Source of the DNA: Phycisphaerae bacterium
Lineage (GTDB): Bacteria; Planctomycetota; Phycisphaerae; UBA1845
Direction: 5' to 3'
NCBI GenBank assembly: GCA_029260055.1
Contig: JAJDDX010000097.1
Location: forward strand, 1-53,493
Length of the DNA: 53,493 nt
The notes beneath the pieces were generated by a model that saw only the letters and a list, made by a program, of their open reading frames with translations, was not told the DNA's origin and did no database searches. Numbering within the stretch: the first letter of the stretch is position 1; each line of letters starts with the position of its first letter. This document shows positions 4,956-46,196 of this stretch, piece by piece. The translations under genes were made by a program, and so were the position numbers.

Positions 4956-5069
4956 AGCTGTTCCCTTTCTTCAAACGAAAACCACGCACTTCAGGCCCGA
5001 GCCCCCGGGGTGCGCTGGCATCATGCTGGCGTCCGACGCACGGCCGAGATGCCGGTTCGGGGGGCTGCT

Positions 5070-10543: not shown

Positions 10544-10711
10544 ATGAAAAACAACGATGTAACCCAAGATGACTTTGACGACATCGAAGAGGCACTCGAC
10601 CTTTTCGGCGAAACGATCGACGAGGACAACGACGACAGCAAGTGTCTTGGCAGGGCATACGACGCACTCGACAAGCTCAAACGACTGATGACCTGCGCCC
10701 AAGTCGTGTAG
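10544..10711 (+). CDS. Small acidic protein
   Basis: A 55-residue, strongly acidic protein (VTQDDFDDIEEALDLF, TIDEDNDDS) with a predicted helical C-terminus. I do not recognise the family; acidic mini-proteins of this kind on mobile elements can be DNA mimics or antitoxins, but that is speculation. I prefer the ATG at 10544 over 10529 because a TTTATAAA box lies 25 nt upstream. No Shine-Dalgarno sequence is seen. Confidence 0.45.
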   Translation: MKNNDVTQDDFDDIEEALDLFGETIDEDNDDSKCLGRAYDALDKLKRLMTCAQVV

Positions 10712-10813
10712 CGGGAATCCAGAGAGCCGGCGGTAGCAGAAGTCAAGCGTTAGTCGGGCATGATCATGCGTGGCCTGTCAAGCGGTGCATCAGACGACCA
10801 CCACAGTTCAAAG

Positions 10814-10823
10814 CCTTAAAAGG
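10814..10823 (+). promoter_or_regulatory. TATA-like box for the ArdC-like gene
   Basis: CCTTAAAAGG, preceded by TTCAAAG (BRE-like), is centred 24-25 nt before the ATG at 10843. No Shine-Dalgarno sequence lies between. Confidence 0.5.
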
Positions 10824-10842
10824 GCATGCGCGTCGCCTGCGA

Positions 10843-11697
10843 ATGGGAAGCGTCTACGATGTCATCACCGATCGGATCATAAAACTCCTGGAAGCCGGCA
10901 CCGTTCCCTGGCATCGGCCATGGGGCGGGACGCATCGCCAGCCGCGCAACGTCGTCTCCAACAAACCGTACCGCGGCGTCAACACGTTTCTACTATCGGC
11001 GGCCGGCTACGAAACTCCCTATTGGCTGACCTTCAAACAGGCCCGTGATCGTGATGGTCATGTGAAGAAGGGCGAGCACGGCTACCCATGTATCTTCTGG
11101 AAGTGGATTGAACGCGATGACCCCGACAGCGGGGAAGCGACTCGCCGCCCGTTCCTCAAGTACTACACCGTGTTCAACGCAGAGCAATGCGCGGGGATCG
11201 ACGTTCCCGTCACGCAGACGCCGACGCGTGCGTTCTCGGCGATTCAGTGCTGCGAACATGTCGTGACCGGCATGCCACGGGCGCCACCGATCAGCCATGG
11301 CGGTGATCGCGCGTGCTACGAACCAACGTCGGACCGGGTACGGCTGCCACCGAAGGAGCGTTTTGACAGCTCTGAGGCCTACTACGGCACGCTGTTTCAC
11401 GAGTTGGTCCACAGCACCGGTCATGAATCGCGGCTCGCCCGATCGGGGATCACCGACACGATCGTCTTCGGATCCCGTACGTACAGCAAGGAAGAACTCG
11501 TCGCCGAGATGGGAGCTACGTTCCTGTGCGGCCACACGGGGATCGAGAACAAACTGATTGAAAACTCGGCCTCCTACATCGCCTCCTGGCTCCAGCGCCT
11601 CCGCAATGACAGCCGGCTCGTGATTCAAAGCGCAGGACAAGCCCAGAAAGCGGCGGACTACATACTCGATCGGCGGGAGGAGGAAGTGTCAGGTTGA
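10843..11697 (+). CDS. ArdC-like antirestriction / zincin protein
   Basis: A 284-residue protein with the two-part ArdC layout. The N-terminal ssDNA-binding domain (about 1-130) contains VPWHRPWGG, NPYRGVN-like NKPYRGVNTF and the GEHGYPCIFWKW strand. The C-terminal zincin-like domain has FHELVHSTGH (HExxH, near residue 190) and a downstream glutamate in KEELVAEMGA. ArdC proteins are carried by conjugative plasmids, phages and archaeal elements, and protect incoming single-stranded DNA. I chose ATG 10843 because the conserved domain starts there and a TATA-like box stands 24-25 nt upstream; a frame extends to 10642 without support. Its stop overlaps the TTG start of the next gene (TTGA). Confidence 0.85.
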   Translation: MGSVYDVITDRIIKLLEAGTVPWHRPWGGTHRQPRNVVSNKPYRGVNTFLLSAAGYETPYWLTFKQARDRDGHVKKGEHGYPCIFWKWIERDDPDSGEATRRPFLKYYTVFNAEQCAGIDVPVTQTPTRAFSAIQCCEHVVTGMPRAPPISHGGDRACYEPTSDRVRLPPKERFDSSEAYYGTLFHELVHSTGHESRLARSGITDTIVFGSRTYSKEELVAEMGATFLCGHTGIENKLIENSASYIASWLQRLRNDSRLVIQSAGQAQKAADYILDRREEEVSG

Positions 11698-12137: not shown

Positions 12138-14111
12138 ATGGACATCGAGAAGATCGCTCGCAAGTTGAAGCCGCTGATGCCCACGGACGTGGACCGCTGG
12201 CTCCGCACGCGAGAATCCGCCGAACCCGGGCTGAAGGGCCTGATCGATAAGCAGATCCTGTCGAAAGCCCGGACGACGTTTGGCGACCTCGACTCTCGTA
12301 TCCTTCTGTCCTTGCCGCCACCGCACAAGGCGCGTGGGGCGATTCACCTGGGGGCCGTTCTGTACGAACAGGAGAAGTGGCCGGCGGGAGTATCGTCAGG
12401 AGAGTTGTTGCAGAACCTCGCTATCTTCGGGCGTTCGGGCGCGGGCAAGACCAACGTGGCGTTCCATTTGTTGGAGCAGTTTGGGGCGAAGAAGATTCCC
12501 TTTTTGTTCCTGGATTGGAAGCGTACCGCTCGCCACCTGCTTCCCCGCCTAAAGGCGAAGGTCAACGTCTACACGCCGGGCAGACCTCTCGCACCGCTCG
12601 TCTTCAACCCTTTCATCGTGCCGCCCGGCCTGGAACCCAACGTTTACATCAATCAGGTTGTCGATGTCATGGCTGACGCCTTCACGCTGGGCGACGGTGC
12701 GAGAAGCGTGCTGCAGCGCAGCGTCGTCGCCTGCTACAATCAAGGCAATCATGCTCCATTGGCATCGGAGGTGCTTGCCGAATTGGGCAAGCTTCCGGGT
12801 ACGGGTCGTGCGGGCGGCTGGAAGATCTCGGCGACGCGGGCCCTCGAGAGCCTGACCTTCGCGGATCTCTCGGGCAAGGATCGGGTGTCGCAGGAACAGC
12901 TCGCGCGGTTGTTGCTTGAAGAGAACACGATCATCGAGCTGGATGCCCTGTCGGAAAGCGGCAAGAAGTTCCTCGTTCCGTTACTTCTTCTGTGGCTGTT
13001 CTACGTACAGCTCGGTGGTACCGAGCGCGAAAAACTCAAGCTCGCGGTGTTCGTCGAAGAGGCACACCATTTGCTTTACCGGCAGGAGCGGCGATCCAGC
13101 GAGACGGTCATGAACATACTCCTTCGACAATGCCGAGAAGTGGGCTTGGCCATGCTTGTGATCGACCAGCACCCACACATGATCTCGAGCGTGGCGCTGG
13201 GCAACTGCTATACGAGCATTTGCATGAATCTGAAGGACCCGAGCGACATGAACAAGGCCGCGGCGATCTCGCTCGTGGACGAGGAAGACAAGCGTCTGTT
13301 CAGCAGGTTGCCGGTGGGGCAGGGGGTGGTGAAGCTGCAGGACCGATGGCGACGGCCGTTTCTGGTGGGGTTTCCGCTGGTGAAGATCAACAAAGGAGCC
13401 GTGACCGATGCAGCGCTTGCCCGTTACGTGCGGCGGAATTCAACGGGTACGGCCCGAAACCGGGCCCTGTCGCACGAATTGGGACGGGTTTCGCAGAGTT
13501 CGCTGTGGGATGGGGGGCTCTCTGACACCGCGTTGCGGTTCATAGAGGATGTCATCATCCATCAGGATGATGGAGTGAAGAGGCGCTACGAGCGGTTGAG
13601 CCTGAACGCGGGGGCCGGTACGAGGCTCAAGGAGGAGTTGATCGAGGACGGCTGGCTGGACTCGGAGACAGTAAGCGTGGGGCGGACACGGAAGGTGTTG
13701 TTGCGCCCGACGGTTGAGGCAAGGAAGTTGCTCGGGTTGGAGGAGGGTATCGAACTGCGGGCTTCGGTCGCGCATGAGTACTGGAAGCGGTTCTACGCCC
13801 GGCGGTTCGCCGAGAAGGGCTACAAGATTGAGCTCGAAGCGCAGCGGGCAGGCGGTCGAGTCGACGTGCTAGCCGTGAAGAACGGTGAACGCGTTGGAAT
13901 CGAGGTGGAAACCGGGAAATCCGACGTCGTGGCGAACGTACGAAACTGCCTGCGAAGCGGGTTTGCAAGAGTCATGGTTGTAGCAACGGATGAGGTCGCC
14001 ATGCGGAAGGTGGAACGACAGCTCGCCGAGGCCGGTCTGTTGATTCCGACGCGTGTCGAGCTCGGTCTTCGAGATGAGAATACCGTGGCGATTGACCGTC
14101 ATCCCCATTGA
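12138..14111 (+). CDS. HerA/VirD4-like DNA-pumping ATPase with wHTH and nuclease-like C-terminus
   Basis: A 657-residue FtsK/HerA-superfamily ATPase. Walker A is GRSGAGKTN (98-106), Walker B is in LAVFVEEAHHLLY, and IDQHPHMIS is the sensor-like block. The C-terminal third has a winged-helix region (about 450-530), then a PD-(D/E)XK-like core: RVDVLAV (D576) followed by VGIEVETGKSD (E589, E591, K594). Such proteins form hexameric motors that move double-stranded DNA in conjugation, packaging or end processing. The partner may be the coiled-coil protein just upstream. A similar ATPase plus nuclease-like pair, there as two genes, occurs at 23.0-25.2 kb. No Shine-Dalgarno sequence is apparent; expression is probably coupled to the upstream gene. 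Confidence 0.8.
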   Translation: MDIEKIARKLKPLMPTDVDRWLRTRESAEPGLKGLIDKQILSKARTTFGDLDSRILLSLPPPHKARGAIHLGAVLYEQEKWPAGVSSGELLQNLAIFGRSGAGKTNVAFHLLEQFGAKKIPFLFLDWKRTARHLLPRLKAKVNVYTPGRPLAPLVFNPFIVPPGLEPNVYINQVVDVMADAFTLGDGARSVLQRSVVACYNQGNHAPLASEVLAELGKLPGTGRAGGWKISATRALESLTFADLSGKDRVSQEQLARLLLEENTIIELDALSESGKKFLVPLLLLWLFYVQLGGTEREKLKLAVFVEEAHHLLYRQERRSSETVMNILLRQCREVGLAMLVIDQHPHMISSVALGNCYTSICMNLKDPSDMNKAAAISLVDEEDKRLFSRLPVGQGVVKLQDRWRRPFLVGFPLVKINKGAVTDAALARYVRRNSTGTARNRALSHELGRVSQSSLWDGGLSDTALRFIEDVIIHQDDGVKRRYERLSLNAGAGTRLKEELIEDGWLDSETVSVGRTRKVLLRPTVEARKLLGLEEGIELRASVAHEYWKRFYARRFAEKGYKIELEAQRAGGRVDVLAVKNGERVGIEVETGKSDVVANVRNCLRSGFARVMVVATDEVAMRKVERQLAEAGLLIPTRVELGLRDENTVAIDRHPH

Positions 14112-20892: not shown

Positions 20893-21381
20893 ATGAACGA
20901 TGCCAAAGTGTTGATGAGCCGAGTTACCGGCATTCTGGACGACAAAGATGTTTGCTACGAGTCCTCTAAGAGCGGTCGGGTGATCAGAACCGGATCCCGC
21001 ATCGAGTGTGGCTTCGTGGAGATCCTGATCAGCGCGATCGAGGATCCCGCCCTGCTGCAAGTCCTGGTGCGTCTCCCCCTCGCGGCACCGGAGAACAAGC
21101 GACGTGACATCGCTGAGGCGATGATGAGGGTCAACGCCGATCTGTACCTGGGGCGTTTTGAACTGGACTTCCGGAAGGGGGATATGACCTTCTCCGCAAG
21201 CATCCCGTTGATGGGCACCGTGCTGAACGACGATCAGTTCCACGCAGTGCTCGGTATGGCGCTTCACTCGTGCGATCGGTACTGTCGAGCGTTTGGGCGG
21301 ATGATGTTCGATGACGATCTCACCCCGGCACAGGCGGTTGCCGAGGTCGACATGGCCGAAGGTGACGATTCTGGCTCGTAA
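20893..21381 (+). CDS. YbjN-domain protein
   Basis: A 162-residue protein resembling the YbjN/type III secretion chaperone-like fold: LQVLVRLPLAAPENKRRDIAEAMMRVNADLYLGRF followed by alternating strands and a C-terminal helix (read here in short blocks). YbjN proteins are of poorly known function and often sit near stress or secretion genes. It is the first gene of the rightward module that ends with the integrase at 29.2-30.5 kb. CGGAG lies about 15 nt before the ATG, which is rather far. Confidence 0.6.
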   Translation: MNDAKVLMSRVTGILDDKDVCYESSKSGRVIRTGSRIECGFVEILISAIEDPALLQVLVRLPLAAPENKRRDIAEAMMRVNADLYLGRFELDFRKGDMTFSASIPLMGTVLNDDQFHAVLGMALHSCDRYCRAFGRMMFDDDLTPAQAVAEVDMAEGDDSGS

Positions 21382-21440
21382 AGCCAGCCTCAGCTGCCGG
21401 AGACCAGGAAACTCGAGATTCGAGACGCTGAGAGGCCGTC

Positions 21441-21977
21441 ATGGGAACGGATTTGACTCAAGCCCGCCGGAAGGACCCACGGTGGGACGAGGTGTGCGCC
21501 TCGCTTCCCGCCGTGCGGCGCTGGCTTGAGTTGGTCGCGCAGCTGGTCGGTGAGCTCGAACCCGGAGTTCCGTCCGAGACGCTCGATCTGAACGTCGGTG
21601 TTTCGCCGTCAGTGGGGCGCACGCTAGCCGGTATGCCCGGTGTCGCGGACGACTTGGCTGCGCCGCCTAGCTCCGTGTCGGTGTCACTCGGTCGTCCTGT
21701 CGATTCTATGCCCGACGACGTCGACGAGCGCGTTCGGTTGCGCCTGCTCTTCGAGCAGTACGAGACGTGCCAGGAGGAGCTGTCATCACGGCAGTGGCGG
21801 ACCGTCTGCCTTCGGTTCCGAGATGGGCTCACGCAATCTCAGATTGGCGTGACGCTCAAGAAGAGCCGGAGTTCCGTTCACGGTCTCCTGAAGCGTGCCC
21901 ATCAGGTCAAGGAGGCGTACCGGCAGCGGCTTCGGTCGGAGCGATACCGTCTCGCGCGAAAAAACCTGAATCCATAA
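21441..21977 (+). CDS. Sigma-70 region 4-like HTH protein
   Basis: A 178-residue protein whose C-terminal part has the sigma region 4 pattern: LSSRQWRTVCLRFRDGLTQ, then QIGVTLKKSRSSVHGLLKRA. The N-terminal 110 residues are acidic and carry no region 2, so it is not a complete ECF sigma factor and may be an anti-terminator, a sigma-like activator or a plain HTH regulator. AGAGG lies 7 nt before the ATG. It is near the head of the integrative-element module and is a natural candidate for its control protein. Confidence 0.65.
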   Translation: MGTDLTQARRKDPRWDEVCASLPAVRRWLELVAQLVGELEPGVPSETLDLNVGVSPSVGRTLAGMPGVADDLAAPPSSVSVSLGRPVDSMPDDVDERVRLRLLFEQYETCQEELSSRQWRTVCLRFRDGLTQSQIGVTLKKSRSSVHGLLKRAHQVKEAYRQRLRSERYRLARKNLNP

Positions 21978-22094
21978 GTAAAAACGCGGCGCTTGACCGG
22001 GCTTCCAGGGGGACCTGCCGATGCCGACGAGGTTGCGGCGGGGCGTTGAGTGTGCCCGGTGGAGCGAATCAGACCCCTGACAGAGGAGATTGCG

Positions 22095-22382
22095 ATGAAG
22101 ATTAACTGTGGTGTTCCCGGTTCGGACCGGTTGCCGCCGGCGTATAGGCGCGCGGCCAACCTGCGAACAGACCTCGGCCGAGCCGTTGGCCTGTACGCCA
22201 TCGGCGATAGGTCAGACGTGGTCTTGCGAACGCTGGCGCAAGGCAAAGCAGCCTATGACCAGATCGGCGCGCGAATCCCGGTTCCTCTCGGCATCAAGCC
22301 GGTCGAGTGGGCGGGGATTCTGGATGCGTTGAAGAAGCGCTACGTCTTGAAGCCCTTCGACCACACGCCGCAGGCCGCCTAA
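22095..22382 (+). CDS. Hypothetical 95-residue protein
   Basis: A small basic protein of unknown family with a helical centre (DRSDVVLRTLAQGKAAYDQIG) and a motif PLGIKPVEWAGILDALKKRY near the C-terminus. A strong GAGGAGA Shine-Dalgarno site lies 7 nt before ATG 22095. It is followed after 12 bp by a small membrane protein gene, so the two are probably co-translated. Confidence 0.6.
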   Translation: MKINCGVPGSDRLPPAYRRAANLRTDLGRAVGLYAIGDRSDVVLRTLAQGKAAYDQIGARIPVPLGIKPVEWAGILDALKKRYVLKPFDHTPQAA

Positions 22383-22394
22383 GGGAGTCGACCC

Positions 22395-22574
22395 ATGAAC
22401 CCCTGGAAACAGACCATCCTCTACCTGTTGCGCGATATCCTGCGATTCGCGATCTGGCTCGTGCTCGTGATCAACGGGCTTCTGTTCGCAATCTTCTCCG
22501 TCGCGTTCGTCTACCAGCTCCTGCGCCACCTGTGGACTTGGTGCGATCGCGTTCTCTTTCCCGGCACGTGGTGA
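22395..22574 (+). CDS. Small membrane protein (59 residues)
   Basis: This short gene has AAGGGAG 7 nt before its ATG. The protein is dominated by one long hydrophobic stretch (about 15-42; LRFAIWLVLVINGLLFAIF) with Trp and Arg at both ends, so it should be an inner-membrane protein with one or two spans. No homology is recognised. Small membrane proteins of this type are common next to VirD4-like coupling ATPases, and one lies 0.4 kb downstream. Confidence 0.6.
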   Translation: MNPWKQTILYLLRDILRFAIWLVLVINGLLFAIFSVAFVYQLLRHLWTWCDRVLFPGTW

Positions 22575-22611
22575 TCAGAGGCGGCGTCTGCAAGACCCGG
22601 ATGGTGAATTC

Positions 22612-23010
22612 ATGCAACCGATTCGCGGCGAACGAGAACGGGAAGTCATCCATGATCCCTGGGATCAAGACGAGCAACAGGTCGGACAAAACGACACGAC
22701 ACACATCCTCAACGACGAAGGCGCGATCGAGTCGCTTCGTACCGGGCGCCGGGTCGCCTGCGTGTGTGGATGTCTCAAGCCAGCGGGGGGCTTCTGCGCC
22801 GCATGCACCAAGCCCGTGTGCGTGGATTGCTACGGTTTTTGTAGCAGTTGTTTTATGCCTCTGTGTCCGCGCCACAGCGTGTTCAGCCGAATCGAAGATG
22901 GTTCAACCGCGCGCCTCTGTCGGGCGTGTGGCGGGACATCGGCACGCAAGCGGCTTCTGCGCGGTGTTGTGCGAGGTGTGTTGTCTCCCTTCATCCGGTT
23001 CGACGACTGA
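22612..23010 (+). CDS. Cys-rich zinc-finger protein
   Basis: A 132-residue protein with about twelve cysteines between residues 48 and 110, in the order CVCGC, CAAC, CVDC, CSSC, CPRH and CRAC; the spacing fits several structural zinc sites resembling B-box or double-zinc-ribbon domains. The N-terminus is charged, and a short basic C-terminal helix (RKRLLRGVVRGVL) follows the last pair. It ends one base before the start of the coupling-type ATPase. It is probably a structural or nucleic-acid-binding accessory protein of that ATPase. Confidence 0.6.
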   Translation: MQPIRGEREREVIHDPWDQDEQQVGQNDTTHILNDEGAIESLRTGRRVACVCGCLKPAGGFCAACTKPVCVDCYGFCSSCFMPLCPRHSVFSRIEDGSTARLCRACGGTSARKRLLRGVVRGVLSPFIRFDD

Positions 23011-23011
23011 T

Positions 23012-24790
23012 ATGACCAAGGATCCATCATCCCATCTCATCGAAGATCTGCTTTACGCGTACGAGCATCGGCTGCTTACCGATCCGGTCGGTCAGGCGGT
23101 CGACCGTTCCATCGCCGCCGGCGTTCAGGGTAAGTTCGACATGGCGGAGCTCACGCGCCGGGTCGGGAAACACCAAACGGCGCAGCGGTTTGCCGGGCCG
23201 TTTCGTCGGCATGAACTAACGCGGGGCGCCATCCTCCTCGGGCACGATCTTCAGGGCAGGGCGGTGCGGATACCGGTTCAGCCGTTGTGCGCTCACAGCC
23301 TTACACTCGGAGGCAGTGGATCCGGGAAGACCACGAAATCTCGCTGGCAGATTCTCCAGGTCGCGTCGCGGGTGCCGGGCCTGTGGCTCTTCGATTTCCG
23401 GAAACGCGAATACGCCTGCCTCGTGCCTTACCTCGCCGCACTCGGCGTCGATTTGATCGTGGTGCCGGCACGCTCCTTGAAACTCAACCCCCTTCAGCTA
23501 CCGGCGGGTGTCGATCCGCACAGCTGGGCGTCACGGGTTGCGGACATGCTCGTTCAGGTGTTCAGGTTGCCGGCTCGGGCCACCAAGCTCCTGCAGCTCA
23601 CGGTGATCGATCTGTTCGAACGGCGCGGCGTGCTGCGGGGGACGGACGACTATCCTACCCTCTTCGATCTGCGTGAGGCGATCGCACGTAACGTTGCGGC
23701 GAATCCGCAGGCTCGTGCGGCGATCGTCGACGTCCTGGACCCGGTGTTGATGTCGCTGCGGTCTGTACTTGCCTACCGGCGCGGGTGGTCGAGTCAGGAT
23801 CTCGCGCAGCACCGGATCGTGTTCGAGCTGGATGGTGTCGGCGAGGTCGAGAAGGACCTGATCCTGTCAAGCCTCGTACTTCCAGAATTCACGTCCCGCG
23901 TGGCTCGGGGGATCTCCAATCGGAGCATGAACCTCTGGATCTGCTGCGACGAAGCCGCTCGGCTCGTGTCGACCTCGACAACCGCGGGAGGGATGGCCGA
24001 CCTGATCGGCCTGATACGGGGGTCGGGTCTCGGTTTGGATTTGTCGATTCAATCGGCCGACATCGCCCCCGCCGTGCTATCCAATACGGCCAGCAAGTTC
24101 ATCGGTCGCTGCGGAAGCAGTCGCGACTACGATTCCATCGCCTCGGCGATGGGGCTAAGTCCGGACCAGCGCAAGCAACTCGCCACGGTGCTGGTGCCCG
24201 GCGTGTTCGTCGGCCAGGTCGGCGAGGGTGATTGGCGACATCCGTTCATCTACCGGGTGCCGGACGTGGATCTATCCGAACCGCCACATGTGGCGATGCC
24301 GCCGGGCGGCTCGGTGCCGGTAGGTCTGCTGCCCAGACCGCAAGCTGGCGCCGGTGCTGATGTCACCTGCGATCACGCATCCGGACGCCATGCCGATGTT
24401 CTAGGGTCGCTACCGATCGAGCCGGCGCCGGAGTTCGCTGATTGGCACTTCGATCCGGCGCGACGACGGGCGACGGCGACATCCCCGGCGGATTCACAAA
24501 CCGATACCCATGCCGCCCAACCGAATAACCCGCCGCACGTAAACGGACCCACCGAGACCCTGAGTGATGCGGAGCGGAGGTTCCTGCGGGCCGTGATCGA
24601 CCATCCCGGCACTGTCTCGAGTGGGTTGGCCAGGCTCGCCAGTATCGGGACTCATCAGGCGATTGCGGTGCGGAAGCGGCTGATCGAGCGTGGCCTCGTT
24701 CGTGAGCACCGCGTCAACACGTCGAATCGGGGTCGAGCTTCCATCGTACTAGAACCGCTGCCGGCGGGACTGGCGGCCATGCAAACCTAG
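23012..24790 (+). CDS. VirD4/HerA-like coupling ATPase with C-terminal winged helix
   Basis: A 592-residue ATPase of the VirD4/TraG/HerA superfamily. Walker A is GGSGSGKTTKS (near residue 100), Walker B is in MNLWICCDEAARLV, and SIQSADIAP is the following sensor-like block. The C-terminal 80 residues (LSDAERRFLRAVIDHPG, then GLVREHRVNTSNRGR) form a winged helix. No N-terminal membrane spans are present, unlike classical VirD4. Such motors pump DNA during conjugative or related transfer. It stands between a Cys-rich protein and a nuclease-like protein. The frame is open upstream, but I start at ATG 23012 because the Cys-rich gene ends there. Confidence 0.8.
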   Translation: MTKDPSSHLIEDLLYAYEHRLLTDPVGQAVDRSIAAGVQGKFDMAELTRRVGKHQTAQRFAGPFRRHELTRGAILLGHDLQGRAVRIPVQPLCAHSLTLGGSGSGKTTKSRWQILQVASRVPGLWLFDFRKREYACLVPYLAALGVDLIVVPARSLKLNPLQLPAGVDPHSWASRVADMLVQVFRLPARATKLLQLTVIDLFERRGVLRGTDDYPTLFDLREAIARNVAANPQARAAIVDVLDPVLMSLRSVLAYRRGWSSQDLAQHRIVFELDGVGEVEKDLILSSLVLPEFTSRVARGISNRSMNLWICCDEAARLVSTSTTAGGMADLIGLIRGSGLGLDLSIQSADIAPAVLSNTASKFIGRCGSSRDYDSIASAMGLSPDQRKQLATVLVPGVFVGQVGEGDWRHPFIYRVPDVDLSEPPHVAMPPGGSVPVGLLPRPQAGAGADVTCDHASGRHADVLGSLPIEPAPEFADWHFDPARRRATATSPADSQTDTHAAQPNNPPHVNGPTETLSDAERRFLRAVIDHPGTVSSGLARLASIGTHQAIAVRKRLIERGLVREHRVNTSNRGRASIVLEPLPAGLAAMQT

Positions 24791-24807
24791 GACAGGGGGA
24801 CATATTC

Positions 24808-25197
24808 GTGCGAGGTAGATATCTGCACAACGAATTGATGGTTCATCCGCTGGCCGGAGCTTTCGATTGCGAAGACTGGCAGACCGATCTCGAGGTCCCC
24901 ATTCGGATGGGCGAGACGATCGGCTTCGTGGATCTGGTGGCGGAGCGGGAGGGCTATTGCATCGCCGTCGAGGCGGAGTGCTCCGCCGCGCGGGTCGAGC
25001 GTGACCTTGATAAGGCCCAGGCCCTGCGGGCGGATGAGCTCTGGATCGTGACGCCGACTCGTCGGGTGGCCGACGCGGTGCAGCGCAGGCTCGGTCGGCT
25101 GCTCATTCCGGTCGATCCGGACAGCATTTGTGTGCTGACACAAGGCCAGGCGCTGCATCGGGTTACGTCTTGTTTGCCGCTGATTGCCGGGCGGTAA
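24808..25197 (+). CDS. PD-(D/E)XK-like small protein paired with the ATPase
   Basis: A 129-residue protein with the core pattern of a restriction-endonuclease-like fold: IGFVDLVAEREGYCIAVEAE, giving Asp near 42 and the pair E53/E55, then the strand ADELWIVTPTR. The canonical lysine of the ExK motif is not obvious, as the second position is Glu. The same D...VExE arrangement occurs in the fused C-terminus of the HerA-like ATPase at 12.1-14.1 kb, so the two are probably related modules. The start is GTG 24808 with AGGGGGA about 9 nt upstream. It may be a nuclease or a DNA-binding relic. Confidence 0.5.
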   Translation: MRGRYLHNELMVHPLAGAFDCEDWQTDLEVPIRMGETIGFVDLVAEREGYCIAVEAECSAARVERDLDKAQALRADELWIVTPTRRVADAVQRRLGRLLIPVDPDSICVLTQGQALHRVTSCLPLIAGR

Positions 25198-25236
25198 GGC
25201 AACATACAAACCGGCAAAGAAAGGAACACTGGACCC

Positions 25237-25470
25237 TTGGAAATCAGATGGACCAACGTGGCGGCGTTCGGGATTGCGGTCGTTGCTGCCGTACTAGCCC
25301 TGCGTCACCGCGGTGACGTGCAAGCGGCGCTGTCGACGGTTTCTGCGATCGGGCCGGGGCACACCCCGGATGAGCAGATCCGAGGTTTGTGCGTGCTCGG
25401 CGTCATCCTCGTGACGCTGGTTGTGATCATTCGGCTGGCCATCGCAGGCAACGGGAGGAAGGACAAGTGA
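25237..25470 (+). CDS. Small membrane protein (77 residues)
   Basis: A protein with two hydrophobic segments (about 8-22 and 50-70; VLGVILVTLVVIIRLAIAG) and a basic tail, so probably a double-spanning inner-membrane protein. It starts with TTG at 25237; the stop codon overlaps the GTG start of the GrpE-like gene (GTGA), tying the two together. No family is recognised. Confidence 0.5.
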   Translation: MEIRWTNVAAFGIAVVAAVLALRHRGDVQAALSTVSAIGPGHTPDEQIRGLCVLGVILVTLVVIIRLAIAGNGRKDK

Positions 25471-26195
25471 CCAGAGGTACAGAGACAGCAGAGAGGCAGG
25501 AACGACTGGTCCTGGGCGACACGGTTGTGATCGAGAGGCCGTGCCTTGACGCCGGCGTGGAGGAAGACGGCGCCGACGACACCGATGTTGGCCGAAACGG
25601 TGCGGGTGTCGGCACGGCCGCCGCGAATGCGAGCGAACCGCTCGACCGGATCGACGACCTGGCCGTGTCGCTCGGCGCGATTGGGCAGGATCTGGACGGA
25701 CTTACCGAGAGCGTCGCGCAGCAGCGTGAGCAAATCGCTGAGCTGCTGGCACGCGATGAGCTATTCGGCCAGCTTCATGAACGACTGGCGGGCTACGAGC
25801 AGGACGAGCGGCGGCGCACATTCATCGAGCCGCTGACGAGGAAGCTCGCGGCCCTGCAGCGGAGCCTCCTCGAAAACCGCGCCTTCGTTGAGAAAGCGCT
25901 TCGCTCCCTCCCGCAACCGCTGCGATCCCATTCCGCCTACTTCTGGTCCGGCCAGGTGCTGGAGGGGATCTGCATCGAGCTGGAGTCCGTGCTCGCGGAC
26001 TTCGGGGTCGAGCCGTTCACGTCGGAGTCGAACCGATTCGATCGGACGTGCCAGGAGGCAGTTCAGCGGGTTGCGGCGACCGATGCGGCCCAAGTCGGGC
26101 GCATCGCGACGCGGATCGCGCCGGGTCTTCGGATCGAGGATCGCGTCATCATTGCGGAACAAGTCGCCGTGTTCGTCGGCCGGACGACCGGCTGA
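25467..26195 (+). CDS. GrpE-like nucleotide exchange factor
   Basis: A 242-residue protein with an acidic disordered N-terminus (about 1-60), a long coiled-coil helix (about 60-140) and a C-terminal region that resembles the GrpE beta domain: SVLADFGVEPFTSESNRFD, then EAVQRVAATDA, then GLRIEDRVIIAEQVAVFVG. GrpE dimers release ADP from Hsp70 proteins, and the very next gene encodes an Hsp70-like protein, which supports the call. Sequence similarity is modest and the protein is longer than housekeeping GrpE (about 200). It is translationally coupled to the preceding membrane protein. Confidence 0.7.
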   Translation: MTRGTETAERQERLVLGDTVVIERPCLDAGVEEDGADDTDVGRNGAGVGTAAANASEPLDRIDDLAVSLGAIGQDLDGLTESVAQQREQIAELLARDELFGQLHERLAGYEQDERRRTFIEPLTRKLAALQRSLLENRAFVEKALRSLPQPLRSHSAYFWSGQVLEGICIELESVLADFGVEPFTSESNRFDRTCQEAVQRVAATDAAQVGRIATRIAPGLRIEDRVIIAEQVAVFVGRTTG

Positions 26196-26228
26196 AACGA
26201 CATCTCATTCTGAAAGGACGATGGAACA

Positions 26229-27743
26229 ATGATAGTTATAGGTATGGACGTCGGCACGACGCGGAGCAAGGTCGCTGCCATGGACGAGACGGGGCGCCCG
26301 CAGATCGTACTGAACCGTCGCGGGGATCCCTTCACGCCGTCGGTTATCTACTTTGAGGATGGCAGGACTCCCATCGTGGGCGCCGAGGCTTTGGCCGAGG
26401 GGTTCCTCCATCCGGAATATGTCCACTCGTGTTTCAAGCGAGCTCTGGGGTCGCCGGACGGGCTGCACACGGATGCGTCTGGCAAGTCGTACACGGCGAC
26501 CGGCTTCACGCAGATCCTGATCACCGATCTGAAGCAGGACGTGGAGGCCCGATTCAACGAGGAGGTCGACGAGGCGGTCTTCACCGTTCCGGCCAACTTC
26601 CAGGACCACAAGAAGCAGGCCATGATCGACGCGGCAGGGGCGGCCGGGATTAAGGTGGTCAAGCTGGTACACGAGCCGACCGCAGCCGGGATCGCGTATG
26701 CCCTGCAGAAGAAGAGGGATTTTCGGTTCGTGGTGTTCGATCTCGGCGGTGGCACGCTCGACGTGTCGATTCTCGAAGCCGCCGGAAGCGAGATCACGGT
26801 GCTCAGCACGACCGGACGCGAGAAACTCGGGGGCGAGGACTTCAACGCTCGGATAGAGCGGCTCGTGGTGGAGCAGTTCGCCAAGGAGACGGGGTACGAG
26901 CCGACCGTTGAGTCTGACGCGATGTTCTTCCAGGAGCTCGCCGACAAGGCCGAGCGAGCCAAGATCCATCTCTCCCAAAAAACGGCGACCAAGATCGTCG
27001 CGGGCTGCCAGGGTCGCCAAGCCATCGTCGAGATCACGCGCGATCAGTTCGAGTCGCTCACGTCGGATCTGCTTCAGGACGCCCTCGGTTGCACGACGCA
27101 GGCAGTGGAAGAGGCGAGCCTCTCGTGGACCGACCTCGACTCGATCATCCTCGTCGGCGGCAGCGTTCGCATGCCCGCGGTCCAGTCCGCCCTCGCCGAT
27201 CTGAGCAGTATCGTCCCGCACTGCGACATCGAGCCCGACCGTGCCGTCTGTTACGGGGCGGCCCAGATGTGTGCCATGGAATTCGCCAAGCAGGGCAAGG
27301 CCATCATGATCGGTGGTCGTGCGATTCCGACGCCGCAGGCCTTCGTTCAGGAGGTGACCGCGTACGGCGTCGGCTGCTGCGTGGCGGACAAGGATGGAGC
27401 GCTGCGCAACGCCGTGATCCTGTCCAAGGGCACTTCCATTCCGACCACGAAGACCGACCGGTTCTCACTCCTTCACGAGGATCAGACCGAGGCCCGCATC
27501 GAGATCCTGCAAGGCGGTGAGGGGCAGGCATACGACGAGTGCCTCTCCATCGGTGAGATTGTCCTGACGAACCTGCCGGTTGAGCACAAGAAGTCCAAGC
27601 GGATCGAGGTGACCTACGCCATCGACGCCAACGGCATGATCCGCGCGACGGGCAAGGACCTCGTCGGCGGGGAGCAGGTCGAGATCCGTATCGACTACAG
27701 CAAGGGAACGACGAGTAGCAAGCCGGGCCGCGACGCCGCGTAG
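26229..27743 (+). CDS. Hsp70-like chaperone without lid
   Basis: A 504-residue Hsp70/DnaK-family protein. The actin-like ATPase domain is complete in outline: MDVGTTRS (D7), FDLGGGTLDVSIL in the phosphate-2 loop, and ILVGGSVRMPAVQ. A short substrate-binding beta domain follows, ending with GMIRATGKDLVGG near residue 480. The alpha-helical lid of DnaK is absent, so it is more than 100 residues shorter than DnaK. AAAGGA lies 11 nt before the ATG. It pairs with the GrpE-like gene directly upstream and precedes a von Willebrand A protein; no J-domain gene is visible. Likely role: a dedicated chaperone switch for the element's own machinery. Confidence 0.9.
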   Translation: MIVIGMDVGTTRSKVAAMDETGRPQIVLNRRGDPFTPSVIYFEDGRTPIVGAEALAEGFLHPEYVHSCFKRALGSPDGLHTDASGKSYTATGFTQILITDLKQDVEARFNEEVDEAVFTVPANFQDHKKQAMIDAAGAAGIKVVKLVHEPTAAGIAYALQKKRDFRFVVFDLGGGTLDVSILEAAGSEITVLSTTGREKLGGEDFNARIERLVVEQFAKETGYEPTVESDAMFFQELADKAERAKIHLSQKTATKIVAGCQGRQAIVEITRDQFESLTSDLLQDALGCTTQAVEEASLSWTDLDSIILVGGSVRMPAVQSALADLSSIVPHCDIEPDRAVCYGAAQMCAMEFAKQGKAIMIGGRAIPTPQAFVQEVTAYGVGCCVADKDGALRNAVILSKGTSIPTTKTDRFSLLHEDQTEARIEILQGGEGQAYDECLSIGEIVLTNLPVEHKKSKRIEVTYAIDANGMIRATGKDLVGGEQVEIRIDYSKGTTSSKPGRDAA

Positions 27744-27777
27744 AGAGCCTGCGGCTGCGTACCTTGGAGATAAGACC

Positions 27778-28455
27778 ATGAGATATCTTGATTTTGCAGC
27801 TGGGCAGGCGGATCCGAGGGGCCAGAAGCCCGAGCGACTGATCCTGGCGATCGATGCCTCCCCGTCCATGGATGATACCGATTGGCCGCCTTCCCGGTTG
27901 GCAGCGGCCATCGCGGCGGCCGTGGCGCTGATCGCACGGAAGCTCAAGATCGCACCCGATGACGAGGTGGGCATCGTCGCCTATGCCTCGAAGGCGTGGT
28001 GGGTCGCGCAGCCTGCGGTCGTCCGGAAGAAGCACACTACCCTGCGCGGCGCCCTTAGCGGCATTCGAACGCGCTGCGCGACGAACATCACCTCGGCCCT
28101 GCAGCTTGCCGGGCCGGCGCTGCGCCGTGGTCAGCGCCCAACGCTGCTCGATCGACTCCTTCCACCGATCAAGGTGGCGGATTCTGACGGCTGCGTGCCG
28201 AGGATCGTGATCCTCTCGGACGGTTTTCACAACACGGGAGACAGCCCCCGCGGTGAAGCCAAGGCCCTCAAGAAAAAAGGCGTCTGCATCGACTGCGTGG
28301 GCATCGGCGGCAAGCCCTCGGACGTGGACGAGAAGCTGCTGAAGGCCATCGCGTCGACCCACGCCGACGGCGTCACGCCGCGGTACACGTTCATCGGGGA
28401 CAAGGGCGAACTGATCGAAAAGTTCGAGGAACTGGCGGGGCGGATCACACGGTGA
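27778..28455 (+). CDS. von Willebrand factor A domain protein
   Basis: A 225-residue protein that is essentially one vWA domain. The MIDAS motif is DASPS (DxSxS, near residue 25) with a conserved threonine in TNITSAL and the aspartate in VILSDGFHNTG. These domains bind a divalent metal and mediate protein-protein contacts, often together with AAA or chaperone ATPases. There is no signal peptide, so it should be cytosolic. It lies 34 bp after the Hsp70-like gene, which suggests a functional unit GrpE-Hsp70-vWA. Confidence 0.85.
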   Translation: MRYLDFAAGQADPRGQKPERLILAIDASPSMDDTDWPPSRLAAAIAAAVALIARKLKIAPDDEVGIVAYASKAWWVAQPAVVRKKHTTLRGALSGIRTRCATNITSALQLAGPALRRGQRPTLLDRLLPPIKVADSDGCVPRIVILSDGFHNTGDSPRGEAKALKKKGVCIDCVGIGGKPSDVDEKLLKAIASTHADGVTPRYTFIGDKGELIEKFEELAGRITR

Positions 28456-28513
28456 CGCGGCGCCTGGCACGTTCATCCGCCGTCACACTAACCCCGAAAA
28501 GCGAGACAACACC

Positions 28514-28822
28514 ATGGGACTAATCACGTTCTTGATGATTACGTTCGGTCAGGCGATCGGCCTGCTGCTCGAAGTGCTGGCTCTTCTGATCGTGATCCGT
28601 GCGATTTGCGGTCGACGATCCATACCCGTTCTGGCGGAGTTCAACGACGCCGGCCGACCGTTGGTGGATCGGGCGCTCGGGCACGTTGGCCGGTTTTGGC
28701 AGCGAATTGTGCCGAGCCGGCCGTTATCCCCGAACCGGCTGCTGCTCGTGGCATGGCTCAGCGTCACGGCCTTTCGTTGGCTTGCGGCGGTGTTGATCAG
28801 GGTCGCTGCGCAGGGCGCGTAG
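28514..28822 (+). CDS. Small membrane protein (102 residues)
   Basis: An N-terminal hydrophobic span (about 3-30; LITFLMITFGQAIGLLLEVL) and a weaker C-terminal one (about 75-98) suggest a double-pass membrane protein with a basic central loop. No family is recognised and the Shine-Dalgarno signal is weak. It lies between the vWA gene and the excisionase-like gene on the same strand. Confidence 0.5.
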   Translation: MGLITFLMITFGQAIGLLLEVLALLIVIRAICGRRSIPVLAEFNDAGRPLVDRALGHVGRFWQRIVPSRPLSPNRLLLVAWLSVTAFRWLAAVLIRVAAQGA

Positions 28823-28886
28823 CGGATCGCCGGGTCGCGGTGGCCGAACGGAGGCGGCCCCCCCAAGGTCCGAGGAGTTGCCGGGC

Positions 28887-29144
28887 ATGAGCCAGCCGTT
28901 GATTCAGCCGCTGCCGATCGTGATGACCACCGACGAGGTGGCGGCGATTCTGCGCTGTTCCCCCGACACCGTCCGGCGGTACGTCTTCAGCCACCGGCTG
29001 GCCGCCATCAGGATTGGCCGTCAGCGGCGTTTCCGGGCCGACGACGTGGCTGATTTTATAGCGGCGTGCCCCGTCACGGCCCAGTGCGACAAACGCCGCC
29101 TTCGCCGAAAGACTGCCAATTCGGCCGTCCGTTCGCGGAGATAG
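28887..29144 (+). CDS. Excisionase-like HTH protein
   Basis: An 85-residue protein containing a MerR/excisionase-type winged helix: MTTDEVAAILRCSPDTVRRY, then AIRIGRQRRFRADDVADFI, then a basic tail. These proteins bend DNA at attachment sites and steer the integrase towards excision. I chose ATG 28887 because AGGAG lies 9 nt upstream; a TTG at 28878 is in frame. It directly precedes the integrase gene, the normal arrangement in bacterial integrative elements. Confidence 0.8.
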   Translation: MSQPLIQPLPIVMTTDEVAAILRCSPDTVRRYVFSHRLAAIRIGRQRRFRADDVADFIAACPVTAQCDKRRLRRKTANSAVRSRR

Positions 29145-29229
29145 GTGTCACTTTATTGACACTTCTTTCTGAATCTGACTTGATCGATCGGCCGAATCGA
29201 GCCATCGTCACGCGATCCGGGAGGTCTCT

Positions 29230-30483
29230 ATGAACACGTCCGTCAGCTTGCTCCACGAGCCCAAACGGCAAAAGCCGTGGCTCGTGCGCTGGTACGGCGA
29301 GCCCGACGAGCGTGGCACGCAGAGGCGCTACAGCAAGGCCTTCCGGTACTGCCACGAGGCCAAGGCCTTCCATACCAACAAGCAGGCCGCGTTCAACCGG
29401 GGCGAGCCGCGTGATCCGGTCAACGTGACGCTTGAAGAGCTCGTGGAGGATTTCGGGGAGGCGCGTCTTTCGACCCTTAGCTACGCCTCCAAGATTGGCT
29501 ACGGCAACACGCTCGGTCAATTGACCTCCTACTTCGGTCCGGGGCGGAAGGTACGTGAGGTCCGGCGGCGGGAGGCCGAGGCCTTCATCGCCACCCGGAC
29601 TCGACAGGATGGCCGTCCCGGGGGCCTGTCGGATTGGTCGAAGGCGCGGCATCTGATCCATTGCCGGGCGGTCTTCGCCGCCGCGGTGGCCTGGGAATAC
29701 GCGGACGAGAATCCTTTCCGAACCAACGGCGGAGTCGGTGGTTCACCGCTTCGCATGAACCCCAAGGGCAAGCCCTGGCAGCACATCACGCCCGACGAGT
29801 TCAGGAGGCTCCTCGCGCAGACAGACACGCCGCAGAGGCGAGCCGCCTACTGGCTCATGTACGGCTGCGGACTCCGTGCCGGCGAAGCCTACAATATGAT
29901 GGTCGCCAATGTCGATCTCGCCGCACGCCGTGTCCACGTCGTCAACCGAGCCGCCACCGCCGATGCGCCTCCGTTTACCGTCAAGGCCGAGCGGCAATCC
30001 GAATCGAGCAAGGAGCGGTCGGTCCCGATTCCCGAGGCGGCGATAGCGGATCTCACCGAGGCGATGCGTCAGGCGTTCAAGTCCGGCGGATTCCTGGCGC
30101 TGACCGAGGAGCGGTTCCGGACCGTGCAGGAACACTGGCGCCTGTGCCGGGAGGGCAAGCCCTGGGCGGGTGCAGACGCCGGGCGTCCCTGGCAGAACCG
30201 TAACATGATGAACAACCTGTTGCGGGACACTAAGCAACTCCTCATTGCCGCAGGAGTCGAACTGACCGCCCCCTTCACGCTCCACACCTTCCGCAAGAGC
30301 TTCGCCCAGAACCACGCCGATGCCGGCACGCCGCCGTGCACGCTCGCCAAGCTGCTCGGCCACACCAACACGCGGGTCACGCTGCAGTTCTACAACCGTG
30401 TCACCGACGCCAACGAGCGGGCCGCGGGCGAAGCCATGGATCGATTGTTGGCTCCCGGACGAACTTCGGCCCATGCAGGCTAG
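29230..30483 (+). CDS. int: Tyrosine recombinase/integrase
   Basis: A 417-residue site-specific recombinase that appears intact. It has an N-terminal SAM-like core-binding domain (about 60-165) and a catalytic domain with the Arg of GCGLRAGEAYN (near 216), HTFRKS (HxxR, near 351), the histidine in LLGHTNTRVT and the tyrosine nucleophile in QFYNRV (near 388). GGGAGGT lies 6 nt before the ATG, a normal bacterial site. Together with the HTH gene just upstream it makes a complete integration/excision pair and defines the right end of the 20.9-30.5 kb module. The attachment site was not found; a copy within the next few hundred bases is expected. Confidence 0.92.
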   Translation: MNTSVSLLHEPKRQKPWLVRWYGEPDERGTQRRYSKAFRYCHEAKAFHTNKQAAFNRGEPRDPVNVTLEELVEDFGEARLSTLSYASKIGYGNTLGQLTSYFGPGRKVREVRRREAEAFIATRTRQDGRPGGLSDWSKARHLIHCRAVFAAAVAWEYADENPFRTNGGVGGSPLRMNPKGKPWQHITPDEFRRLLAQTDTPQRRAAYWLMYGCGLRAGEAYNMMVANVDLAARRVHVVNRAATADAPPFTVKAERQSESSKERSVPIPEAAIADLTEAMRQAFKSGGFLALTEERFRTVQEHWRLCREGKPWAGADAGRPWQNRNMMNNLLRDTKQLLIAAGVELTAPFTLHTFRKSFAQNHADAGTPPCTLAKLLGHTNTRVTLQFYNRVTDANERAAGEAMDRLLAPGRTSAHAG

Positions 30484-31884: not shown

Positions 31885-32145
31885 ATTCTCGACACCTGGC
31901 CGGCGTATTGGCTTTGCTTCACAATCTCACACACGCCCCAGTGGTGTTGGTAGGGCTTCTCAAGAGCGTCCAGCGCCTCGCGCTCCTCCGTAATGGCGGT
32001 GGAGCCCACCATGTCGGCAATAAGATGGCTTGCGTGTTCTTGCGGCCTTTCGGATAAGATCCTTAAGTTCTGTGTGCTTCTCAACGAGGCGTTGGGGGGC
32101 GGTCTTTCGAACGGCCTTCCTAGCCTGCCTCTTCGCTAGAGCCAT
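31885..32145 (-). pseudogene. Decayed N-terminal copy of the class III cyclase
   Basis: The first 37 codons (MALAKRQARKAVRKTAPQRL, then EKHTELKDLI) align with the N-terminus of the cyclase at 2002-3447. A frameshift near 32035 moves the homology into another frame, which continues with ADMVGST, EALDALEKPYQHH and YAGQV and then stops matching near 31885, before the GDG metal site. The rest of the gene is absent. DNA identity to the intact copy is roughly three quarters by eye. Both copies point left, so they are direct repeats bracketing 3.4-31.9 kb. Confidence 0.8.
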
Positions 32146-46122: not shown

Positions 46123-46196
46123 TGGGCGATACAGGACTTGAACCTGTGACCTCCTGCGTGTCGAGCAGGCGCTCTGGCCAACTGAGCTAATCGCCC
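46123..46196 (-). tRNA. tRNA-Val (GAC)
   Basis: Read on the minus strand, the gene folds into a full cloverleaf: acceptor GGGCGAT paired with ATCGCCC, D-arm GCTC/GAGC, anticodon stem CCTGC/GCAGG with loop TCGACAC, and T-arm ACAGG/CCTGT with loop TTCAAGT. The anticodon is GAC. Position 33 is C where U is almost universal. CCA is not encoded. Its 3' end faces the island (lower coordinates), which makes it the likely integration target of one of the elements. Confidence 0.92.

What the first reader, a model, noticed from the sequence alone, without database searches (positions are those of the whole stretch)
20893..30483. Integrative element with its own GrpE-Hsp70-vWA chaperone unit
Between a sigma-like HTH protein and an excisionase/integrase pair lies a fixed-looking series: Cys-rich protein, VirD4/HerA-like ATPase, nuclease-like protein, small membrane protein, GrpE-like factor, lidless Hsp70 and vWA protein. 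No relaxase, pilus or mating-pair genes are visible. A dedicated Hsp70 with an exchange factor and a vWA partner is unusual for a mobile element and may assemble or regulate an unknown DNA-transfer or defence complex.
Basis: inference. Interest (0 to 1): 0.7.

Follow-up and report, generated by a model that had tools for sequence, protein, structure and literature searches.

The report
tRNA island with swappable chaperone switch
A planctomycete mobile DNA island carries a DNA motor and a nuclease in one operon with a small chaperone set, and in related islands that chaperone set is repeatedly replaced by a kinase set, a ubiquitin-type enzyme set or a tubulin set, which suggests a modular, perhaps antiviral, machine with interchangeable control units.

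Summary
One co-directional gene series (22.1-30.5 kb) encodes small membrane proteins, a zinc-finger protein, a HerA/FtsK-type ATPase with a winged-helix tail, a PD-(D/E)xK nuclease, a GrpE-like factor, a lidless Hsp70, a vWA protein, Xis and Int. The order recurs across Planctomycetota but is not one fixed unit. The ATPase-nuclease core is constant; the segment beside it is exchanged: Hsp70 module (18 of 32 core loci), TerY-like vWA-PP2C-kinase (4), E2/JAB-E1 (2), FHA-tubulin (3), mixed (2), cut or none (3). On the ATPase tree this takes at least 8 changes in 28 rows. Recombinases sit beside a tRNA gene in 17 of 25 testable loci, always in the same orientation; one complete genome has a 228-bp repeat reaching into the tRNA. 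The window's likely site is tRNA-Val at 46123. No relaxase (PF03432) or VirB4 (PF03135) in 12 of 12 genomes. Xis-Int also occurs without the core, and the Hsp70 module with a different HerA-like ATPase. Best reading: an integrative island whose payload is a membrane-associated ATPase-nuclease immune effector governed by an interchangeable cassette, here a chaperone switch. Anatomy and exchange are shown; function is inferred.

The parts
22095..22382 (+). small conserved protein o110 (ATG 22095)
   Evidence: cluster of 8 ORFs; no Pfam family above cut-off
22395..22574 (+). sTM1, 59 aa, one predicted membrane helix; first gene of the constant core
   Evidence: hydropathy (23 of 23 cluster members have a helix); tblastn
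22612..23010 (+). Cys-rich zinc-finger protein; C-terminal half FYVE-like in the model
   Evidence: 9 invariant Cys in 16 sequences; model pLDDT 92.1; VIA-align best 1vfy FYVE Z 6.8, rmsd 2.3, 58 aligned; top 13 rows FYVE or FYVE-like Rab-effector fingers; Foldseek E 0.35 or worse
23012..24790 (+). HerA/FtsK-superfamily ATPase with C-terminal winged-helix-like segment
   Evidence: profile A1 against PDB: five HerA-type chains, E 2.4e-6 to 0.006; invariant Walker A G103/K106; PF01580 only 0.0096
24808..25197 (+). PD-(D/E)xK nuclease
   Evidence: invariant H7, D42, E57 and nearly invariant E55, K69 in 26 sequences; model pLDDT 92; VIA-align AF1548 Z 10.5, Upx 9.3, NucS 9.0, Can2 8.8
25237..25470 (+). 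sTM2, two predicted membrane helices; 3' end of the constant core
   Evidence: 15 of 15 cluster members have a helix
25467..26195 (+). GrpE-like factor; start overlaps sTM2 stop by 4 bp; start of the exchangeable module
   Evidence: PF01025 1.9e-7; profile A4 hits GrpE 3a6m 5.8e-11
26229..27743 (+). lidless Hsp70 (NBD + SBD-beta, altered linker)
   Evidence: PF00012 8.4e-97; tree; motif and length comparison
27778..28455 (+). vWA protein with DxSxS MIDAS-type motif
   Evidence: PF13519 7.9e-13; DxSxS in 14 of 14 cluster members
28514..28822 (+). TM3, small protein with two predicted membrane helices
   Evidence: cluster of 9; no Pfam
28887..29144 (+). Xis-like HTH_17 protein
   Evidence: PF12728 6.2e-15
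29230..30483 (+). tyrosine recombinase Int
46123..46196 (-). tRNA-Val(gac), proposed attachment gene
   Evidence: nearest Int relatives with an adjacent tRNA (L037, L186, L187) sit at tRNA-Val(gac)
12138..14111 (+). second, fused HerA-like protein (DUF87 3e-6), upstream cargo
   Evidence: PADLOC HerA 4.7e-10, mad8 7.7e-9
10642..11697 (+). ArdC-type antirestriction protein
   Evidence: PF08401 1e-34, PF18818 2.9e-37
41812..45797 (-). Gabija pair GajB (41812-43746) and GajA (43650-45797), cargo between Int and tRNA-Val
   Evidence: PADLOC GajB 6.8e-167, GajA 4.8e-196

Best explanation
A tRNA-targeting integrative island carries, next to its Xis-Int pair, a membrane-associated ATPase-nuclease effector (sTM1, zinc-finger protein, HerA-clade ATPase, PD-(D/E)xK nuclease, sTM2) under the control of an interchangeable cassette; in the window that cassette is GrpE, lidless Hsp70 and vWA. 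Shown: gene content, order, overlap of sTM2 and GrpE, exchange of the cassette in relatives, tRNA association. Inferred: the hexameric ATPase pulls invading DNA to the nuclease at the membrane; the lidless Hsp70, reset by GrpE and bridged by the vWA protein, holds or assembles the complex and releases it when infection supplies its trigger, as a kinase-phosphatase-vWA set, an E1-E2-JAB set or a tubulin set would do in the sister systems. It is thus most likely an immune system, less likely part of the island's own transfer.
For: The exchange of the cassette beside a constant core: 18 Hsp70, 4 TerY-like, 2 E2/JAB-E1, 3 FHA-tubulin, 2 mixed, 3 cut or none of 32 loci; at least 8 state changes in 28 tree rows, with well-supported mixed clades such as TerY L083 with Hsp70 L088/L090/L091 (100/98). 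TerY-P protects against T7-like phages (PMC7699616, one passage), and L039 matches PADLOC TerY at 6.3e-17. Hsp70-GrpE, kinase-PP2C-vWA and tubulin are also the three non-overlapping themes of GAP1-N2 conflict systems (PMC7159879 section 29). The ATPase is nearest HerA, the nuclease fold is clear. Xis-Int works without the core elsewhere (L186, L187, L192 carry primase-type genes instead), so the core reads as payload. Other cargo is defence or antirestriction: Gabija, ArdC.
Against: No core or Hsp70-module protein of the window has a strong PADLOC match (ATPase to mad8 3e-7 and HerA 2e-4 only). No phage phenotype is known. A recombinase lies beside nearly every uncut core, which would also fit a role in mobility. 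ArdC is typical of transferred DNA (recalled). In L086 (both phosphate motifs), L092/L093 and L084/L090/L091 the Hsp70 nucleotide-binding motifs are altered, so a working chaperone cycle cannot be general. In L080 the Hsp70 set lies upstream of the core. The membrane placement of ATPase and nuclease rests on neighbouring small membrane proteins and on N-terminal helices of the nuclease in 3 of 28 loci.
Confidence: 0.5

Rival explanations
1. The core is the island's own DNA-transfer machine, working like the single FtsK-type translocase of actinobacterial integrative elements (dsDNA moved by one hexameric ATPase, no relaxase or type IV secretion), and the exchangeable module assembles or positions it.
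For: HerA/FtsK superfamily ATPase with winged-helix tail and small membrane proteins directly before Xis and Int; no relaxase PF03432 or VirB4 PF03135 in 12 of 12 genomes; ArdC in the same island; large serine recombinases can stand in for Int beside the core (L043, L080, L085).
Against: Close Int relatives are carried by elements without the core (G048, G049, G052, G083, G087); the ATPase is nearest HerA rather than FtsK/TraB; a PD-(D/E)xK nuclease is not needed for such transfer; kinase, ubiquitin-type and tubulin sets do not suggest transfer.
Confidence: 0.22
2. The core protects or stabilises the island itself: it removes competing elements at the same tRNA, or controls excision, and the chaperone module sets the timing.
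For: Tandem remnants of a related element at one tRNA-Asp in G240 (228-bp repeat with the tail of an Int gene, 112.8 kb away); the nuclease model also resembles XisH, the fdxN-element excision factor (2okf, Foldseek 8e-4, VIA Z 7.3 over 106).
Against: XisH is one of many PD-(D/E)xK matches of equal or better score; no experiment.
Confidence: 0.15
3. A stress or protein-quality unit picked up as cargo: the Hsp70 set serves host proteins and its place beside the ATPase is incidental.
For: Hsp70 set also occurs without this core (L185) or with a different HerA-like ATPase (L196, L197).
Against: sTM2-GrpE overlap by 4 bp; Hsp70 beside the core in 18 of 32 loci; lid and canonical linker lost in 19 of 19 element Hsp70s examined; even L196/L197 pair it with a HerA-like ATPase.
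Confidence: 0.08

Closest known systems
GAP1-N2 GTPase-centred conflict systems (Kaur et al. 2020, PMC7159879, section 29 read)
   Same: The alternative gene sets HSP70-GrpE, kinase-PP2C-vWA and tubulin appear as mutually exclusive themes; reported also in planctomycetes; thought to act near the membrane.
   Different: There the centre is a GTPase with GAP1; here a HerA-type ATPase with a PD-(D/E)xK nuclease. No GTPase family was matched among the window proteins scanned. A vWA partner in the HSP70-GrpE theme and an E1/E2 set are not mentioned in that section.
TerY-P triad, stand-alone antiphage system and CoCoNuT companion (PMC11090510 passages; PMC7699616 passage)
   Same: vWA-PP2C-kinase set occupies the Hsp70 place in L039 and L042; CoCoNuTs also combine TerY-P, Hsp70-like proteins and FtsK/HerA-type ATPases.
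   Different: The window has no PP2C or kinase in the operon; CoCoNuT McrB GTPase, McrC and HEPN parts were not found; Hsp70 there is a CnuD homologue with degenerate motifs.
HerA-nuclease defence systems and MADS (PADLOC models HerA, mad8)
   Same: HerA-clade ATPase with a nuclease partner; L196 ATPase matches mad8 at 6.7e-18.
   Different: Window ATPase matches only weakly (3e-7, 2e-4); no SIR2, DUF4297 or other MADS partner matched in the operon.
DnaK/GrpE chaperone system
   Same: Hsp70 NBD and SBD-beta, GrpE beta-domain.
   Different: No lid, altered linker, no J-domain gene among operon proteins scanned, vWA partner, separate clade.
Integrative elements at tRNA genes, including AICEs
   Same: Tyrosine recombinase, Xis-like HTH, tRNA 3' end facing Int.
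   Different: HerA-type rather than FtsK-type ATPase by best match; exchangeable regulatory sets; replication initiator not sought.

Membership tests
Site-specific integrative element at tRNA genes | recombinase plus Xis at one end | tested here: met
Site-specific integrative element at tRNA genes | tRNA gene next to the recombinase | tested here: met
   17 of 25 loci with flank have one within 2 kb, 17 of 17 with the 3' end facing the recombinase. In the window itself the tRNA-Val is 15,640 bp away, so for the window alone this is by analogy.
Site-specific integrative element at tRNA genes | direct repeats at both ends | tested here: inconclusive
   Met in G240 (228 bp, 14 mismatches, 112.8 kb apart), but that left copy holds an Int tail and may be a remnant of an older element; none of 13 nt or more in 8 other sequences, 12 nt in the window
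Conjugative ICE with type IV secretion | relaxase | tested here: not met
   PF03432 0 of 12 genomes, control rings in 1 of 14; other relaxase families not searched
Conjugative ICE with type IV secretion | VirB4 ATPase | tested here: not met
   PF03135 0 of 12 genomes, control rings in 1 of 14
Actinobacterial-type integrative element (AICE) | FtsK/TraB-type dsDNA translocase | tested here: inconclusive
   same superfamily; best PDB matches are HerA, PF01580 only 0.0096
Actinobacterial-type integrative element (AICE) | replication initiator gene | not tested
   no dedicated search
TerY-P triad | TerY-like vWA, PP2C and kinase in one set | tested here: not met
   window operon has only the vWA; met in relatives L039/L042
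GAP1-N2 conflict system | GTPase with GAP1 component | tested here: inconclusive
   no GTPase family among the window proteins scanned; GAP1 not sought by profile
Known HerA-nuclease or MADS defence system | match of ATPase and partner to PADLOC models | tested here: not met
   only mad8 3e-7 and HerA 2e-4 for the ATPase, none for nuclease, GrpE or vWA at 1
PD-(D/E)xK nuclease superfamily | alpha-beta-beta-beta-alpha-beta core with acidic motif | tested here: met
   catalysis not tested
Hsp70 | actin-like NBD with phosphate motifs and SBD-beta | tested here: met
DnaK (canonical) | alpha-helical lid and conserved hydrophobic linker | tested here: not met
   132 residues after linker position; VLLLDVTPL-type linker absent
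FYVE zinc finger | FYVE fold with basic lipid-binding motif | tested here: inconclusive
   fold resemblance Z 6.8, under the tool's caution level of 8; basic motif not examined

The most novel reading that the evidence does not exclude
A new class of mobile prokaryotic immune system built like a socket: one DNA-translocating HerA-type ATPase plus PD-(D/E)xK nuclease at the membrane accepts any of four unrelated control cassettes (chaperone, phosphorylation, ubiquitin-type conjugation, tubulin), exchanged as blocks between islands. The same cassette set serving GAP1-N2 systems would then be a general kit of plug-in switches for bacterial immunity, with the lidless Hsp70-GrpE-vWA set acting as a chaperone-based infection sensor.
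Probability: 0.35. Interest if true: 0.85.

Novelty: new variant of a known kind. Interest (0 to 1): 0.62.

Why it matters
If true, four regulatory systems that look unrelated (chaperone cycle, protein phosphorylation, ubiquitin-type conjugation, tubulin) do the same job for one constant DNA-attacking machine. That makes an open question directly testable: what input do TerY-P, bacterial E1-E2 and Hsp70-GrpE sets read during infection? One can swap the cassette and keep the effector. It also gives a role for lidless Hsp70s and vWA partners outside protein folding.

Tried and rejected
Rejected: (1) one fixed unit, because the Hsp70 module is replaced in 9 of 32 core loci. (2) Ordinary conjugative ICE: PF03432 and PF03135 absent from 12 of 12 genomes; only one family each was searched. 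(3) Recent copy of host DnaK: separate clade. (4) Reading the 700-aa ATPases as core members: they are a second HerA-like family, and I dropped 11 such genomes from the 35 of 397 class hits and 2 from the 9 of 392 phylum hits before counting.

Led nowhere: clean empty site for G088. DNA similarity with G087 resumes at about 34.8 kb, just outside the tRNA-Val at 34614-34687, but the G087 stretch has no tRNA there and its other side matches nothing in 35 kb, so this is not an empty site. G070 flank had no match in G068 or G069. No att repeat in 8 of 9 sequences tested; the 12-nt match in the window is chance level. ATPase not found in plasmid or phage records by tblastn at 1e-5 nor in viral contigs by the pattern scan; these single-sequence queries are insensitive. 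The zinc-finger protein had no Foldseek match better than E 0.35. No shuffled-label control was run for the slot changes and no random-locus control for tRNA proximity.

Labels mended on checking: the 81-aa protein before E2 in L030 has no Pfam match, so 'ubiquitin-like' is by eye; its JAB part is under Pfam's cut-off (0.017). The membrane protein before the tubulin in L087 has an FHA match but no vWA match. L085 tubulin has no Pfam match and joins by BLAST cluster; L094 also by cluster. L042 kinase is 1 bit under Pfam's cut-off. GrpE was clustered in 16 of 18 Hsp70 loci; not in L092 and L093. L041 is cut after the vWA gene. For the tree count L043 (tubulin and vWA upstream, ThiF downstream) was coded as tubulin; L081, L082, L089, L096 were left out.


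Full report
WHAT IS THERE. The window is a complete contig (G000:C497, 53,493 bp) of a fragmented planctomycete genome (7.63 Mb in 500 contigs). From 21441 to 30483 all genes run on + with gaps of -4 to 117 bp. In order: sigma-region-4 HTH protein, o110, sTM1, Cys-rich protein, ATPase, nuclease, sTM2, GrpE-like, Hsp70, vWA, TM3, Xis, Int. The GrpE-like start overlaps the sTM2 stop by 4 bp. Pfam supports sigma r4, GrpE, HSP70, vWA and HTH_17; Int resembles XerD-type recombinases.

THE UNKNOWN PARTS. The ATPase profile (9 sequences, A1) finds five HerA-type chains in the PDB at E 2.4e-6 to 0.006. The nuclease has invariant H7, D42 and E57 and nearly invariant E55 and K69 in 26 sequences. Its model (pLDDT 92) matches PD-(D/E)xK proteins: AF1548 Z 10.5, Upx 9.3, NucS 9.0, Can2 8.8. 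The Cys-rich protein has 9 invariant cysteines in 16 sequences; residues 59-116 of its model (pLDDT 92.1) look FYVE-like (best Z 6.8, rmsd 2.3 over 58, the top 13 rows all FYVE or FYVE-like), but Foldseek gives E 0.35 or worse, so this is a lead. sTM1, sTM2 and TM3 have predicted membrane helices; in L040, L084 and L087 the nuclease itself starts with one (3 of 28).

THE Hsp70. Nineteen element Hsp70s end 128-134 residues after the linker position, against 249-267 in ten host DnaKs, and all lack the VLLLDVTPL-type linker. The window copy keeps both phosphate motifs; L084, L090, L091 (first motif), L092, L093 and L086 (both) do not. In a 35-row tree, 16 element Hsp70s form one clade (100/99) on a long stem, apart from ten host DnaKs (98/96); two cut copies were left out. 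DxSxS is present in 14 of 14 clustered vWA proteins.

HOW WIDESPREAD. ATPase hits: 24 of 114 genomes of the order at E 1e-10 (second HerA family included), 35 of 397 of the class and 9 of 392 of the phylum at 1e-25. After removing weak hits to the second HerA-like family (11 and 2), 24 of 397 and 7 of 392 carry the core. No match in plasmid or phage records or viral contigs with the single sequence.

THE EXCHANGE. I fetched 31 loci besides the window and clustered their ORFs. Beside the core lie: Hsp70 in 18 of 32 (GrpE clustered in 16; in L080 the set lies upstream of the core); TerY-like vWA with PP2C and kinase in 4 (L039, L042, L083, and L041 cut after the vWA); E2 with JAB-E1 in 2 (L030, L031, Bythopirellula polymerisocia); FHA protein with tubulin-like protein in 3 (L087, L094, L085); mixed or displaced in 2 (L043, L082); cut or none in 3 (L081, L089, L096). 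Pfam: VWA_2 2.9e-6, PP2C_2 2.1e-5, Pkinase 3.1e-7, Prok-E2_E 3.2e-7, ThiF 2.9e-31, Tubulin_2 6.3e-18, FHA 8.9e-5. L039 matches PADLOC TerY 6.3e-17 and STK_OB 1.2e-9; L030 matches E1-E2 1.7e-9. On a 37-row ATPase tree the four states need at least 8 changes in 28 coded rows; well-supported mixed clades are TerY L083 with Hsp70 L088/L090/L091 (100/98), tubulin L094 with Hsp70 L092/L093 (98/94) and tubulin L087 with Hsp70 L084 (100/98). No shuffled control was made.

THE ISLAND. With the recombinase turned to +, a tRNA gene lies within 2 kb to its right in 7 of 11 core loci and in 10 of 14 other Int loci with enough flank, 17 of 25 in all; every one of the 17 has its 3' end facing the recombinase. 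Nine amino-acid types or more are represented (Val, Met, Pro, Asp, Glu, Ser, Lys, Ala, Gly, Thr, Phe). In the complete genome G240 a 228-bp stretch (14 mismatches) holding the tail of Int, the flank and the 3' part of tRNA-Asp is repeated 112.8 kb away; since that copy carries an Int tail it may be left from an older related element in the same tRNA. Int relatives of the window at 65, 67 and 59% identity (L037, L186, L187) lie at tRNA-Val(gac). The window's only tRNA is tRNA-Val(gac) at 46123, same orientation, 15,640 bp from Int; between them lies a Gabija pair. I therefore take tRNA-Val as the island's right limit; the left limit is not found.

TRANSFER OR DEFENCE. PF03432 and PF03135 gave 0 of 12 genomes each, with controls ringing in 1 of 14. 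Int is found at E 1e-40 in 28 of 397 class genomes; close relatives in G048, G049, G052, G083 and G087 lie in genomes without the core. L186 and L187 carry CHC2/AAA or DUF3987-Toprim proteins beside Xis-Int, L192 a TOTE primase. L185 keeps GrpE-Hsp70-vWA-Xis-Int without the core. L196 and L197 couple Hsp70 and Xis-Int to another HerA-like ATPase (mad8 6.7e-18 for L196), L196 also to a GrpE-fused protein (1.1e-4, under the cut-off). So core and cassette behave as payload rather than as the mobility machine, and ATPase plus chaperone is a recurring design.

MECHANISM. Shown: composition, order, overlap, exchange, tRNA association, fold of the nuclease. Inferred: the ATPase feeds DNA to the nuclease near the membrane; Hsp70, GrpE and vWA control assembly or release. 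Precedent: GAP1-N2 conflict systems have tubulin, HSP70-GrpE and kinase-PP2C-vWA as three non-overlapping themes (PMC7159879, section 29 read); TerY-P acts against T7-like phages (PMC7699616, one passage) and accompanies CoCoNuTs, which also use Hsp70 homologues and FtsK/HerA-type ATPases (PMC11090510, passages); TerY-P clusters in Helicobacter islands (PMC4978471, passages).

NOVELTY. Nine answered library searches listed no paper whose title or shown abstract describes this combination; I opened only the four papers above, and subscription papers, such as the 2012 TerY-P paper cited in them, are not held. PADLOC has no strong model for the window's core or Hsp70 module. I rate it a new variant of modular NTPase-controlled conflict systems, with an open chance that it is a class of its own.

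Noticed in passing
window 41812-45797 (-): Gabija pair GajA/GajB beside tRNA-Val (PADLOC 4.8e-196 and 6.8e-167).
   Followed up: partly
window 2002-6245 (-): PycC-like cyclase (2.1e-12, N-terminal part), patatin phospholipase and MBL-fold protein in a row, possibly a further defence set.
   Followed up: no
window 3341-3463 and 32039-32161: 123-nt direct repeat, 76% identical: a fragment of the cyclase gene lies downstream of Int.
   Followed up: no
window 340-807: Fragment of a second integrase, 62% similar to an intact one in L131 (7038-8186) upstream of the G088 element.
   Followed up: partly
window 14268-18987: Two large membrane-type proteins in tandem; the second matches M48 peptidase (1.3e-9), the first is its homologue by BLAST cluster; related genes precede the core in several relatives.
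   Followed up: partly
L196, L197: Different HerA-like ATPase with Hsp70, TM3, Xis and Int at tRNA-Thr, and in L196 a GrpE-fused protein.
   Followed up: partly
L084, L031: IS21-type genes (recognised by eye) directly before a shortened ATPase, probably broken copies.
   Followed up: no
L034, L035, L036 (G085): Three core copies in one genome, two on contigs that end in or just after the element, as expected for a repeated element.
   Followed up: no
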